Below, piece by piece: positions 16,302-39,762 of a stretch of 39,762 nucleotides of DNA. Position 1 is the first letter of the stretch. The number at the start of each line of letters is the position of its first letter. The stretch lies in contig CALJEL010000098.1 of the NCBI GenBank assembly GCA_938074335.1, forward strand, positions 1 to 39,762. The letters run 5' to 3'. The DNA is from an uncultured bacterium (GTDB taxonomy: Bacteria > Nitrospirota > Thermodesulfovibrionia > Thermodesulfovibrionales > CALJEL01). Made by a program: the position numbers and the translations under genes. Below the pieces are notes generated by a model. It saw only the letters and a program-made list of their open reading frames with translations. It searched no databases and was not told where the DNA came from.

Positions 16302-16386
16302 CCGTGCACCTACTATTGAAATTGTTGCATCTGAAAGGGTATTATGCCCTCTAAATCCATAGTGCTACAGCACACCTGACGGTGAA

Positions 16387-16473
16387 GTGAGTTAGGGATT
16401 AGTGAATTAGTGAATTAGTGAATTAGTGAATTAGAAAATACTAACTCACTAACTCACTTGCATACTAACTCAC
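16387..16473. repeat. Inverted octad array (TTAGTGAA / CTAACTCA)
   Basis: Four uninterrupted TTAGTGAA octads (16398-16434 region) are preceded by the related GTGAGTTAG. They are followed, after a short A/T spacer, by CTAACTCACTAACTCAC and a further CTAACTCAC in the opposite orientation. The arms can pair with some mismatches, so the array folds into a long hairpin. Confidence 0.8.
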
Positions 16474-16483
16474 TATTTTAGCT

Positions 16484-16510
16484 CTGTCGCACTGTCGCAC
16501 TATCGTACTA
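16484..16510. repeat. CTGTCGCA octad array
   Basis: CTGTCGCA, CTGTCGCA, CTATCGTA and CTA follow each other with an exact period of eight. Related words occur at 23233-23250 and 25031-25054. Confidence 0.75.
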
Positions 16511-16563
16511 TTTTTGGGCATCTTTAGACCATATCCTTATCCTTTTGTACCATAATCCCTAAA

Positions 16564-16612
16564 CTGCCGATAGGAATGGCGGGGGATGCCAAAAGGCTTT
16601 ATCGCGACACCT
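16564..16612 (+). repeat. Left module of the dispersed intergenic element
   Basis: CTGCCGATAGGAATGGCGG-type sequence (inverted counterpart at 25130-25157) is followed by AAAAGGCTTTATCGCGACAC and CT. The GGCTTTAT.GCGACACCT part recurs at 23086-23108 and 24948-24967, each time directly before a different word array. Confidence 0.75.
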
Positions 16613-16622
16613 ATAATTAAAA

Positions 16623-16655
16623 CTGTTTGAACTGTTTAAACCGTTTGAACCGTTC
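16623..16655 (+). repeat. Nonad array (CNGTTTGAA)
   Basis: CTGTTTGAA, CTGTTTAAA, CCGTTTGAA and CCGTTC run with a nine-base period. The same words build the array at 38109-38168 next to cas6. Confidence 0.85.
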
Positions 16656-16659
16656 TAAT

Positions 16660-16686
16660 AAAGGCTTTGAGGCATACCCCGCCATT
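16660..16686 (+). repeat. Right-flank module, diverged copy
   Basis: AAAGGCTTTGAGGCATACCC follows the nonad array and corresponds to the CTTTGAGGC start of the flank modules at 101 and 23350. It then diverges. Confidence 0.6.
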
Positions 16687-23283: not shown

Positions 23284-23300
23284 CTACTTGCACTACTGCT

Positions 23301-24092
23301 CTACTGGTCTGCTGGTCTACTGCTCTGCTGGTCTACTGCTCTTACAAGCCCTTGAGGCGGCCTGCCAGTAGGGTATCGGCAAAATAGGGTTCTTTCAGCC
23401 CTTTTTGCCCTGAGCATAAGAAGGATGGTATTCCCTATAACAAAAAGTATCCCTCCAATTAGTGCAGGCATGGCTCCGGGCTCCTTGCTTATCTCCACTA
23501 TGGCTTCTTTTAATGGGTAGGGTCTGGCTGTCTTCAGATAGAGCCCTGTGCCTTTATGAATAAAGGGTTTATTCGGTACTACGGTGTATCTCAAGTAATC
23601 ACTGAAAGAATGATAAATAATATCCATACCCATATCTGTTATGTATCCAGAATCATCATGCCTTATGATTATCTCCTTTATCTCTACAATAGAGTTATCA
23701 GATAATCTCAGCCAGGTGCCTTCTCTTACCTGAAACAATTCCCTGTATCCACCATGGGAGCTTAAAAGATGTCCCAGAAGTATAAATAGAAATCCAAGGT
23801 GCATTATCTGTGGAGCAATGATGAGCAGGAAATTGGTCTTTTTATATTTTTTGATAATTGACTCAGCACTGCAGAGCAGGGTATTCACTGTGAGCATGGC
23901 TATCGCACCAATAGAAAGTATCAGCCACCAGGAAATCTGCAAAGGCACCTCTTTTAACCAGTAAAAAAGAGGCATTACATAAAGTAGCCCGAAGGCTTCA
24001 TAAGCAGGCATTACAAAGGCTCCAGCAATCAGCAATAAAAGCAGTACAAGTAGAAGGACGATACCTGTGTTGAGTGAAAACAATACCTTCAT
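23301..24092 (-). CDS. resB: ResB-like cytochrome c biogenesis protein with repeat-derived C terminus
   Basis: 263 residues with three N-terminal membrane helices, a periplasmic beta-rich domain (about 120-205, GGYRELFQVREG) and a last membrane helix near 210-230. This is a short version of ResB/Ccs1, which works with CcsA/ResC to pass haem to apocytochrome c (system II). Usual ResB proteins exceed 400 residues. From about residue 236 the reading frame runs through a flank module and word array and ends in SSRPADQ, so the last ~27 residues come from the repeat; the ancestral stop has apparently been lost. It is 21 bases downstream of ccsA and surely cotranscribed with it. Confidence 0.83.
   Translation of the reverse strand: MKVLFSLNTGIVLLLVLLLLLIAGAFVMPAYEAFGLLYVMPLFYWLKEVPLQISWWLILSIGAIAMLTVNTLLCSAESIIKKYKKTNFLLIIAPQIMHLGFLFILLGHLLSSHGGYRELFQVREGTWLRLSDNSIVEIKEIIIRHDDSGYITDMGMDIIYHSFSDYLRYTVVPNKPFIHKGTGLYLKTARPYPLKEAIVEISKEPGAMPALIGGILFVIGNTILLMLRAKRAERTLFCRYPTGRPPQGLVRAVDQQSSRPADQ
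23350..23389 (+). repeat. Right-flank module lying inside the resB-like gene
   Basis: CCTTGAGGCGGCCTGCCAGT continued by AGGGTATCGGCAAAATAGGG. It is the close match of the inverted module at 14082-14119. It follows the word array and encodes, on the other strand, part of the C-terminal tail of the resB-like protein. Confidence 0.8.
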
Positions 24093-37330: not shown

Positions 37331-38116
37331 TTGAGGCTCAGGATTACCTTTGAGGCTCCGAGGCTTCCAATCCTTTACAGACACCGTTTTATTGCCCTGA
37401 TCAAAGAAGTCCTGAGCAGATCAGCCCCTTTATATAAAGAATCCCTTTATCCTGAAGATGGTGCACATTCCAAAAAAGTCAAACCCTTTACCTTCAGTCT
37501 GATACTTCCTCCTCAAAGGACAGTTAAAAAAGAAAGATTCACCATTGATGAAGGTGTAGAGATTGAAGATACAGTTTTTTATTTTCCTCCTAATAGCCTC
37601 ATCTCTCTTTTTATAAGCTCCTGTGACTATCAATTCATGGTAAATCTCTACAACGGTTTAATCGAGATGGGAGAGTTCAATTTCAATGAAGATATCACAC
37701 TTAAGCTTAACAGGGTCTTCATGCTTAATGAACATAATATTACCACTGATGAGGTTACCTTCAAGACCAACGCACCTGTACTGATTGAGGATAAAGAAGG
37801 TAAGCCTCTACTTCCTCTAAACTCTGCTCCATCCTTCGATGACCATTTCAATGCAATACATGATAGAATATTGAAAGACATAAGAGGAGAGGGTCTTTAC
37901 AGAGAGATTGAATTTTATCCAGTGAGGCTCAAAAAACAGGTCGTCAAACACACTCTTAAGGGATTCAGGGAAAGGACAGGCAAGCCCTACATGACCCTTA
38001 CATGCTTTGAGGGATGCTTCAAACTTAAAGGTGACCCGCGAGATTTACACCTTCTCTATCAGATAGGCATTGGTCTGAGAACAGGACAGGGGTTTGGGAT
38101 GGTGGAAACAGTTTGA
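37331..38116 (+). CDS. cas6: CRISPR-associated endoribonuclease Cas6
   Basis: 261 residues of the Cas6 RAMP superfamily, which cuts CRISPR precursor RNA at repeats. The N terminus resembles the first ferredoxin-like domain. His46 in EDGAHSKKVKPFTFS is placed like the catalytic histidine of characterised Cas6 enzymes. The glycine-rich loop GIGLRTGQGFGMVE closes the protein. The start is a TTG at 37331 with GGTGGGGG four bases before it. The stop TGA lies inside the first unit of a nonad repeat array, so the C terminus (ETV) may be set by the repeat. It is the first gene of a cas operon directly downstream of atpC. The region is AT-richer than the atp genes. Confidence 0.92.
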   Translation: MRLRITFEAPRLPILYRHRFIALIKEVLSRSAPLYKESLYPEDGAHSKKVKPFTFSLILPPQRTVKKERFTIDEGVEIEDTVFYFPPNSLISLFISSCDYQFMVNLYNGLIEMGEFNFNEDITLKLNRVFMLNEHNITTDEVTFKTNAPVLIEDKEGKPLLPLNSAPSFDDHFNAIHDRILKDIRGEGLYREIEFYPVRLKKQVVKHTLKGFRERTGKPYMTLTCFEGCFKLKGDPRDLHLLYQIGIGLRTGQGFGMVETV

Positions 38117-38168
38117 ACAGTTTGAACCGTTTAAACTGTTTGAACAGTTTGAACCGTTCGAACCGTTA
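38109..38168 (+). repeat. Nonad array overlapping the cas6 stop codon
   Basis: Seven nine-base words: CAGTTTGAA, CAGTTTGAA, CCGTTTAAA, CTGTTTGAA, CAGTTTGAA, CCGTTCGAA and CCGTTAAT. The TGA of the first word is the cas6 stop. The pattern C[ACT]GTT[TC][GA]AA is also seen at 16623-16655 and 38630-38645. Confidence 0.9.
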
Positions 38169-38184
38169 ATTACAGGGAGAAGCA

Positions 38185-38637
38185 GTGAGCGTTAAATATT
38201 TTGAAGATCTATCAGTCTGGAAGCTATCACGAGAATTGACTAACAGGGTTTATAAAATCACTGCTAACGGTAGATTCTCAAGAGATTTCGGGCTTCGCGA
38301 TCAGATACGAAGGGCATCCGTATCAATAATGTCCAACATTGCAGAAGGATTTGAGAGAGGAGGCAATCAGGAGTTTGTCCAATTCCTGTCAATCGCAAAG
38401 GGCTCTTGCGGAGAAGTCCGTTCTCAGTTATATGTTGCTATAGATCAAAATTATATTGATAAAAAAGAAGGTGAGCAATTGATTGAAGACTTTAAAAGGC
38501 TCTCTATCATGATAAATAATTTTATGGAATACTTAAAAAGCAGTACTTTTAAAGGCACAAAATACAAAAAGCCACTGGTAAAAAGCATGAAGGAAGAGGT
38601 TGAAAAATTGTTAAAGGAATTGAATAAAACAGTTTGA
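38185..38637 (+). CDS. Four-helix-bundle protein of the 23S rRNA intervening-sequence (S23/IVP) family
   Basis: 150 residues with the family start YFEDLSVWKLSRELTNRVY, then RDFGLRDQIRRASVSIMSNI, AEGFERGGNQEF and LSIAKGSCGEVRSQLY. These proteins fold as a four-helix bundle. Members lie in intervening sequences of 23S rRNA genes, and the related Avd serves diversity-generating retroelements; the function of solitary copies is unknown. The start is a GTG at 38185 with AGGGAGA before it. Nonad arrays bracket the gene, and its stop TGA lies inside one (ACAGTTTGA, the same as for cas6). It may be a mobile insertion or an accessory gene of the cas operon. A C-terminal tail of about 30 residues is lysine-rich. 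Confidence 0.93.
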   Translation: MSVKYFEDLSVWKLSRELTNRVYKITANGRFSRDFGLRDQIRRASVSIMSNIAEGFERGGNQEFVQFLSIAKGSCGEVRSQLYVAIDQNYIDKKEGEQLIEDFKRLSIMINNFMEYLKSSTFKGTKYKKPLVKSMKEEVEKLLKELNKTV

Positions 38638-38645
38638 ACCGTTTT
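38630..38645 (+). repeat. Nonad words at the four-helix-bundle gene stop
   Basis: CAGTTTGAA and CCGTTTT follow with the same phase as the array at 38109. The gene's TGA stop is part of the first word, and the next gene starts 14 bases beyond. Confidence 0.8.
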
Positions 38646-38658
38646 TTATAGAAGAGAT

Positions 38659-39762
38659 ATGAAATATAAAATTTATCTCAGAGATTGGTACTTTAACGCC
38701 GGAATTATAGGATTTCTAACAATTACCGCTGATGGGCAACCGCTTGAAGAAATTTCGTCTTTAGCTGTTGGAGAAAACTATATTGAGTTTGAAGACTCAA
38801 TATTTGATGGTTTTGAGGGGAAGTTTACGAAATATGCTTTTCTAAAGTTTTTTAATGTTCAGTTATATCTTCAAAGATTGCAAAAAGCTCAAAAAGATTT
38901 GGCTGATAAAAAGACAAAAATAAAACAGGAGCAAATTGCCAAAAAGATAGAGGAGATTGAAAAACCACCTTATAAAGATTTTCTTAAATTATTGGGTATA
39001 TCAATCTCGGGGTATCAAAGCATTGAAGACTTTATTGCCATTCTTGAAAATGCAAAGAACTTCATAAAAGCTTTGCCTAAAGAACGGATCTTTCAGATAT
39101 TGAACAGCAAAGGAAAGGCATCACTGCAGAATTTTATAGAATGGAGGTTTAAAGGCGTTTGTTCCCATGACAGTATCTCAGAATATATAAACAGAATGAG
39201 GACTGCAAATCACTCAAAGAAATTGAAAAATAACGACCTCTGCCCATCCTGTCAGGAAAGAAAAGCGGAATACGAGTTTAATAATGCTGTATCCAATATC
39301 ATTGGCTTTAATAAGGACAACGCCAATTGGGTGTGGGGATTTAAGCCTTCAAAAATGAAGATATGTTCATTATGTGCAATAATTTATAACTGTGCCTTTG
39401 CATCATTTGCATATGTTCCCAAAAAGGTTGGTGGAGATTATTTGAACTATTTTTATTTCCCCAATGAAAACACTAAAGTTAGAACATTATTTGAGACAGT
39501 AAGGAAATTTAATCTTATGCTTGATAATATTGAGGATAACAGTAATCTCCTTTATGCAATGATAAGGCAGACTGTAGAACATATAGCTACAAAACAGTCA
39601 AAGAGTATTGCAGAGAATATTAATTTTATTGAGATCGCTGACAATCCAATACTGGCAGGGCAAGGCACTAAGGGATATAACATTTATAATTACAATGTCA
39701 GTCCTAAAATTGCCGAGTTTCTTTACCATCAATTTCAAACAGATAGTATCCCAAGAGGTTTT
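38659..39762 (+). CDS. Type I-B CRISPR large subunit, Cst1/Cas8-like (partial, runs off the window)
   Basis: 368 residues are visible before the window ends. The N terminus (MKYKIYLRDWYFNAGIIGFL) and the two CxxC pairs, C195/C198 in LCPSCQERK and C236/C239 in ICSLCAIIY, match the CXXC-CXXC Cst1 proteins of subtype I-B (Tneap). These are the Cas8-type large subunits of Cascade that recognise the PAM. A coiled, lysine-rich region (70-105) separates the N terminus from the zinc-binding part. A weak AGAAGAGAT precedes the ATG. It lies directly after the four-helix-bundle gene. Other cas genes (cas7, cas5, cas3) should follow outside the window. Its codons are AT-richer than those of the atp operon, in keeping with transfer. 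Confidence 0.85.
   Translation, partial: MKYKIYLRDWYFNAGIIGFLTITADGQPLEEISSLAVGENYIEFEDSIFDGFEGKFTKYAFLKFFNVQLYLQRLQKAQKDLADKKTKIKQEQIAKKIEEIEKPPYKDFLKLLGISISGYQSIEDFIAILENAKNFIKALPKERIFQILNSKGKASLQNFIEWRFKGVCSHDSISEYINRMRTANHSKKLKNNDLCPSCQERKAEYEFNNAVSNIIGFNKDNANWVWGFKPSKMKICSLCAIIYNCAFASFAYVPKKVGGDYLNYFYFPNENTKVRTLFETVRKFNLMLDNIEDNSNLLYAMIRQTVEHIATKQSKSIAENINFIEIADNPILAGQGTKGYNIYNYNVSPKIAEFLYHQFQTDSIPRGF

What the first reader, a model, noticed from the sequence alone, without database searches (positions are those of the whole stretch)
38109..38645. Four-helix-bundle gene bracketed by nonad arrays inside a cas operon: a candidate mobile unit or new accessory system
The S23/IVP-type gene sits between cas6 and the cst1-like gene. 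Seven CNGTTTGAA words stand before it and two stand after it. Both cas6 and the four-helix gene end in ACAGTTTGA, so the same repeat word supplies both stop codons (ETV and KTV ends). This is what one expects if a unit made of gene plus one array copy had inserted at, or duplicated, an array lying at the end of cas6. The family is already known from 23S rRNA intervening sequences and from Avd of retroelements. The alternative is an RNA-binding accessory to Cascade or crRNA processing. Link to mobility is inference.
Basis: partly seen in the sequence, partly recalled or inferred. Interest (0 to 1): 0.8.

Follow-up and report, generated by a model that had tools for sequence, protein, structure and literature searches.

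The report
One-gene elements flanked by repeat arrays
A small gene of unknown function between two CRISPR genes is one copy of a widespread type of tiny one-gene DNA element, bracketed by arrays of 7- to 9-letter repeats that differ from element to element; such units appear able to move, although how they move is not known.

Summary
An IVP/S23 four-helix-bundle gene (PF05635) sits between cas6 and cas8b1/cst1. A 61-bp nonad array stands before it and about 1.5 words after it, and the same word supplies both stop codons. Relatives have empty sites or other genes at this junction. All four IVP genes in the genome have word arrays, each with its own word.

Across 194 IVP genes from many phyla, 71% have mutually inverted flanks, against 8% of neighbouring genes and 4% of permuted partners. 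Related IVP genes at unrelated loci share their words, and one pair is 94% identical over a stretch ending inside the arrays, so gene plus arms relocate as a unit. Solo arrays are about 20 times denser in IVP-carrying genomes, unevenly so. There is no target-site duplication, RNA-pairing signature or reverse-transcriptase association. GxxExxY genes share the architecture; ORF6N and Y1 transposases do not.

Verdict: the mobile-unit reading is supported. Insertion into a pre-existing array at cas6 is not shown, and a general CRISPR role is not supported, although the window's subfamily is CRISPR-linked (7 of 13). The chemistry of movement is unknown. IVP genes in cas loci and heptamers in the Coxiella IVS were already published.

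The parts
37331..38116 (+). cas6; its last codons and stop (ACAGTTTGA) are supplied by the first array word
   Evidence: TIGR01877 E=6.5e-34, PF01881; sequence
38107..38167 (+). 5' word array, period 9, CNGTTTGAA
   Evidence: tandem score 34.5 against shuffle maximum 13
38185..38637 (+). IVP/S23 four-helix-bundle gene, GTG start, long C-terminal tail; Shine-Dalgarno-like AGGGAG at 38174-38179
   Evidence: PF05635 E=1.1e-38; AlphaFold2 model pLDDT 93.6, Foldseek to 2gsc, 2rld and Avd 4dwl
38629..38647 (+). 3' word array: one exact nonad, which gives the IVP stop codon, plus one degraded nonad
   Evidence: sequence
38659..39762 (+). cas8b1/cst1, cut by the contig end
   Evidence: TIGR01908 E=1e-17
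16370..16501 (.). Gene-less nested hairpin of word arrays (inner octamer GTGAATTA, outer TGCGACAG/CTGTCGCA); copy of a dispersed family whose ends also bound the IVP element on contig C2
16575..16686 (.). Gene-less hairpin with a nonad array (16621-16654) in its centre
23289..23342 (.). Solo octamer array (TGCTCTAC-type words)

Best explanation
The IVP gene and its word arrays form a small one-gene DNA element that inserted between cas6 and cas8b1 in this lineage. Elements of this type consist of [tandem 7-9-bp words]-IVP ORF-[the same words, usually inverted]. The word is private to each element lineage and changes fast by gain and loss of whole words, while the gene is under purifying selection. 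Shown here: the bracket architecture, its specificity, joint relocation of gene and arms, lineage-specific occupancy of the cas6-cst1 site, and gene-less copies dispersed through the genome. Inferred: IVP, a pentameric four-helix bundle like Xcc0516 and Avd, recognises the hairpin or the regular spacing rather than a word sequence, and helps such hairpin DNA to be copied or inserted using host replication and repair. Slippage and template switching then renew the arms. The chemistry of insertion is unknown, and whether IVP itself acts in it is the weakest step (about 0.4 on its own).
For: 194 IVP genes against 442 control genes from the same loci: inverted flanks (score >=12) 71.1% against 7.9%, permuted partners 4.3%, dinucleotide shuffles 3.1%; arrays on either side 80% against 19%; period 7 dominant, then 8. 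After clustering proteins at 60% identity: 74 of 97 clusters, p=4e-43. The pattern holds separately in the own phylum (66%), in other phyla (76%) and in viral-type contigs (77%), while ORF6N gives 0/26 and Y1_Tnp 0/7. Pairs at different loci share words: 27% at 60-70% protein identity, 58% at 70-80%, 2 of 2 above 80%, about 3% for random pairs. L071/L120: 93.7% nucleotide identity over 441 bp, ending inside the arrays, with unrelated flanks. Empty cas6-cst1 junctions in three relatives. dN/dS 0.09-0.24. At least 40 dispersed gene-less copies share ends with the C2 IVP element, which lies inside a CRISPR array. Solo arrays 5.4 per 100 kb in IVP+ genomes against 0.26 in IVP- genomes.
Against: The window's own 3' array is short and runs in the direct orientation, so this copy is atypical. 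No target-site duplication. IVP genes are rare on plasmids (28 of 72,556) and were not found in phage records, unlike most active insertion sequences. No excised or circular form could be tested. Array density is concentrated in 8 of 19 IVP+ genomes. Same-locus inheritance explains some of the word sharing. No catalytic residue is assigned to IVP.
Confidence: 0.7

Rival explanations
1. The arrays are ordinary, independently spreading microsatellite or REP-like repeats, and IVP genes merely tolerate or accumulate in such intergenic DNA. IVP plays no part in their spread.
For: Gene-less arrays outnumber IVP genes in this genome, and some arrays occur in IVP-minus genomes. No TSD.
Against: The flanks of one IVP gene match each other (71%), not those of other loci (4%) or of neighbouring genes (8%). 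Another orphan family of the same phylum lacks them (ORF6N 0/26). Words travel with the gene to new loci.
Confidence: 0.2
2. The IVP gene is a recruited accessory of CRISPR-Cas (crRNA processing or Cascade), and the repeats are incidental.
For: 7 of 13 members of the long-tailed subfamily are next to cas genes (cas6, cas8b, csm4, cas10, cas3, csx1) and one is next to a type IIG restriction gene. IVP genes in cas loci are published (PMC3936711; PMC10910872).
Against: Neighbours over the phylum are mainly housekeeping genes. Relatives with the same cas genes lack IVP at this junction. The arrays are present across IVP genes in general, not only in cas loci.
Confidence: 0.12
3. The element works at the RNA level, like the IVS of 23S rRNA: the arms form an RNA stem that is cut out by RNase III or copied by a reverse transcriptase in trans.
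For: Fold relationship to Avd, the partner of DGR reverse transcriptase. IVS in rRNA are excised as RNA hairpins (PMC4990558). The window words can pair with themselves in RNA through two G-U pairs (inference from the sequence).
Against: Arm mismatches show no excess of G-U-compatible changes (217 against 218, 138 loci). IVP and reverse transcriptase presence are unassociated (OR 1.18, p=0.54), and this genome has no RVT_1 hit.
Confidence: 0.12
4. The hairpins are mobilised by Y1 (RAYT/IS200-type) transposases acting on single-stranded hairpins, with IVP as passenger.
For: Y1_Tnp and IVP co-occur (OR 2.4, p=0.0004). No TSD fits a Y1-type mechanism.
Against: 45 IVP+ genomes lack Y1_Tnp at the threshold used. 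Y1 genes tested are not in such arrays (0/7).
Confidence: 0.15

Closest known systems
Intervening sequences (IVS) of 23S rRNA genes with S23/IVP ORF (Coxiella, Leptospira)
   Same: Same protein family, a single ORF, terminal inverted repeats; the Coxiella IVS even has tandem heptamers (GACAGAT) before the ORF (PMC4990558)
   Different: Here outside rRNA genes, in operons and CRISPR arrays; arms made of private word arrays; arms show no sign of selection for RNA pairing
23S_rRNA_IVP genes in cas loci (PMC3936711; also PMC10910872)
   Same: IVP next to cas6, cmr and other cas genes, as in this window
   Different: In the passages read, those papers treat IVP as a CRISPR-linked function and mention no flanking arrays; here the arrays accompany IVP inside and outside cas loci
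TAACTGA heptamer arrays of Beggiatoaceae, Cyanobacteria and Bacteroidetes (PMC4679880)
   Same: Dispersed intergenic heptamer arrays, suspected horizontal spread without a known mechanism
   Different: There one fixed word without a linked gene; here many words, linked to IVP or GxxExxY genes
Avd of diversity-generating retroelements
   Same: Same four-helix-bundle fold (Foldseek TM-score 0.88 by target)
   Different: About 10% sequence identity, no reverse transcriptase linkage
MITEs and REP/RAYT elements
   Same: Dispersed gene-less hairpins in the same genome
   Different: Arms are tandem words with nested layers, no TSD, no Y1 transposase in the element

Membership tests
IVP/S23 four-helix-bundle protein family (PF05635) | Profile match over the cut-off and the four-helix fold | tested here: met
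   132 bits against cut-off 33.8; model matches 2gsc, TM-score 0.92 by target
IVP/S23 four-helix-bundle protein family (PF05635) | Conserved RxxxSxxxNxxE core | tested here: met
   R43, S47, N51 and E54 invariant in 16 sequences
23S rRNA intervening sequence (IVS) | Located in a 23S rRNA helix | tested here: not met
   Lies between cas6 and cst1; no IVP locus fetched contains the 23S marker motif
23S rRNA intervening sequence (IVS) | Terminal inverted repeats around the ORF | tested here: inconclusive
   Family-wide 71%, but the window copy has a short direct 3' array
23S rRNA intervening sequence (IVS) | Excised from RNA by RNase III | not testable with these tools
   Needs RNA data; no wobble asymmetry in arms
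DDE-type insertion sequence | Target-site duplication | tested here: not met
   10 of 137 against 8.5 expected for >=4 bp
DDE-type insertion sequence | Fixed terminal inverted repeats specific to the transposase | tested here: not met
   Words differ between elements, shared only among close homologues
REP/RAYT (Y1 transposase) elements | Y1 transposase gene in or beside the element | tested here: not met
   Y1_Tnp flanks lack such arrays 0/7; 45 IVP+ genomes lack Y1_Tnp at the threshold used
CRISPR-Cas accessory gene | Conserved presence with the same cas genes | tested here: not met
   Absent from the junction in the relatives examined
DGR Avd | Adjacent reverse transcriptase and template/variable repeats | tested here: not met
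   No RVT_1 in this genome

The most novel reading that the evidence does not exclude
IVP genes, and separately GxxExxY genes, define a new class of bacterial mobile element whose ends are recognised by structure and spacing (inverted arrays of 7-8-bp words) and not by sequence, moved by a protein with no known recombinase fold, and responsible for many of the unexplained heptamer-type arrays dispersed through bacterial genomes.
Probability: 0.35. Interest if true: 0.92.

Novelty: new variant of a known kind. Interest (0 to 1): 0.75.

Why it matters
IVP proteins are common and annotated only as 'four helix bundle protein' or as 23S intervening-sequence protein, and dispersed heptamer arrays in bacteria have had no proposed source. 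Tying the two together gives IVP a testable role, offers a mechanism for array spread, may explain why IVP genes turn up inside CRISPR arrays and cas operons, and points to GxxExxY, another common unknown, as a second gene of the same element type.

Tried and rejected
RNA-stem selection: no G-U asymmetry. Target-site duplication: none over 137 elements; the 14- and 25-bp duplicated CRISPR-repeat pieces around elements in CRISPR arrays may be recombination between repeats, not TSDs. Reverse transcriptase in trans: no association. Y1 transposase: associated, but not necessary at the threshold used. ORF6N as another such element: no arrays, although ORF6N genes occupy the same cas6-cst1 junction in two relatives. 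Spread by phages or plasmids: IVP rare or absent there. L203/L230 looked like a word-sharing pair at different loci but did not hold up on inspection: their array words are plainly different, so individual pairs need checking. A comparison with genuine rRNA IVS copies was not possible because none was among the loci.

Full report
What is there. The gene at 38185-38637 is a member of PF05635/TIGR02436 between cas6 and cas8b1/cst1. The AlphaFold2 model (pLDDT 93.6) matches Xcc0516 (2gsc), BT_0352 (2rld) and, more distantly, Avd of diversity-generating retroelements (4dwl). A period-9 array stands at 38107-38167 and one and a half words stand at 38629-38647. The upstream array is far beyond chance (34.5 against a shuffle maximum of 13).

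Other IVP genes of the genome. There are four. All lie in word arrays, but with different words: nonad CNGTTTGAA (window), octamer GGTTAAGA/ATTCACCG (C28, arsD-arsA junction), heptamer CTTTGAA (C27, between type III RAMP-type genes), octamer TTAGTGAA (C2, inside a CRISPR array).

Empty sites. In relatives with 49-74% identical Cst1, cas6 and cst1 abut or are about 50 bp apart, without IVP and without nonads (L046, L048, L049). Other relatives carry unrelated sequence (L047), an AbrB-PIN pair (L045) or ORF6N genes (L044, L050) at the same junction. The junction is permissive and the IVP unit is lineage-specific there. None of these relatives shows an array at the end of cas6, so insertion into a pre-existing array is not supported.

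Family-wide test. I collected 194 non-redundant IVP genes with flanks from the window's phylum, from viral-type contigs and from named genomes of many phyla. They were compared with 442 other genes from the same loci, with permuted partners and with shuffles. The two flanks of an IVP gene are inverted copies of each other in 71% of cases, against 7.9% for controls, 4.3% for permuted partners and 3.1% for shuffles. Arrays are found on at least one side in 80% against 19%. The period is mostly 7, then 8. One representative per 60% protein cluster gives 74 of 97. Only 20 of 194 show neither signature. The window's own copy is weak on the 3' side and by itself does not pass the inverted test.

Unit behaviour. 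Word sharing rises with protein identity and holds for homologues at unrelated loci: 27% of pairs at 60-70% identity, 58% at 70-80%, 2 of 2 above 80%, about 3% at random. Classification of 'different loci' rests on 1.3 kb each side, and one top pair (L203/L230) failed inspection, so these rates are approximate. The clearest case is L071/L120: 93.7% nucleotide identity over 441 bp, beginning and ending inside the arrays, flanks unrelated; L092/L111 is similar at 80%. The proteins are under purifying selection (dN/dS 0.09-0.24). In the arsD-arsA junction, G000 and G114 IVP genes differ by dS 0.03 while the arrays differ by whole octamers; the 48-bp difference keeps the ArsA N-terminus, which the array encodes, in frame.

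Gene-less copies and nesting. The C2 IVP element shares its ends with at least 40 dispersed copies of about 80 bp in the genome, one in the window at 16401-16482. Their layers are nested: outer TGCGACAG words, inner GTGAATTA words, sometimes nonads in the centre. In genome G015, CRISPR arrays carry an IVP element, a degraded IVP fragment with the same kind of arms, and IVP-less hairpins with those arms. Across one order, word arrays away from IVP genes occur at 5.4 per 100 kb in IVP+ genomes and 0.26 in IVP- genomes; by genome this is 8/19 against 2/20, Mann-Whitney p=0.007, so the difference is concentrated in a few genomes.

Mechanism. No TSD. Arm mismatches are not biased towards G-U pairs (217 against 218), which argues against selection for an RNA stem and for a DNA-level hairpin or inverted repeat. 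Reverse transcriptase presence is unassociated with IVP; Y1 transposase is associated but absent at the threshold used from 45 IVP+ genomes. Because words are private to element lineages while period and inversion are kept, recognition by structure or spacing is the simplest inference; that IVP does this is not shown.

Specificity. GxxExxY genes (PF13366, PDDEXK_3) have the same inverted word flanks in 62% of 26 cases; ORF6N (0/26) and Y1_Tnp (0/7) do not. GxxExxY and IVP co-occur (OR 3.2, p=0.0035), but this genome lacks GxxExxY at the threshold used.

CRISPR link. Phylum-wide, IVP neighbours are mostly ordinary genes. The window gene belongs to a long-tailed subfamily (13 members) of which 7 lie next to cas genes and one next to a type IIG restriction gene. 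This may be recruitment or insertion preference; the data do not decide. IVP in cas loci was reported in 2013 (PMC3936711) and in a 2023 survey (PMC10910872); heptamers in the Coxiella IVS in 2016 (PMC4990558); unexplained heptamer arrays in 2015 (PMC4679880). The library searches found no paper linking IVP genes in general to inverted word arrays; subscription papers and preprints are not in that library.

Noticed in passing
L377-L406 (GxxExxY loci), e.g. L380, L382, L384: GxxExxY (PF13366, PDDEXK_3) genes are bracketed by inverted word arrays like IVP genes (62% of 26).
   Followed up: partly
L045, L050, L044 (cas6-cst1 junction in relatives): The same junction carries an AbrB-PIN pair or ORF6N genes, with a re-duplicated 12-16-bp piece of the cas6 end at the right border in L045 and L050.
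   Followed up: partly
L081 5700-6400, L082 9180-9330; L008 500-1200: CRISPR arrays carry IVP elements and IVP-less hairpins, flanked by 14- or 25-bp pieces of the 36-bp CRISPR repeat.
   Followed up: partly
L006, L075, L083 (arsD-arsA junction): The 3' word array encodes the variable N-terminus of ArsA (FTNSPIHRFT-type peptide); in L083 an ArsR-like start also carries the same kind of words.
   Followed up: partly
window 16370-16686 and 23289-23342: Nested gene-less hairpins of word arrays and a solo octamer array in the same window.
   Followed up: yes
L002, L003, L109, L118, L123, L125, L138, L090: Long-tailed IVP subfamily with a basic C-terminal extension is concentrated in cas and restriction loci.
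   Followed up: partly
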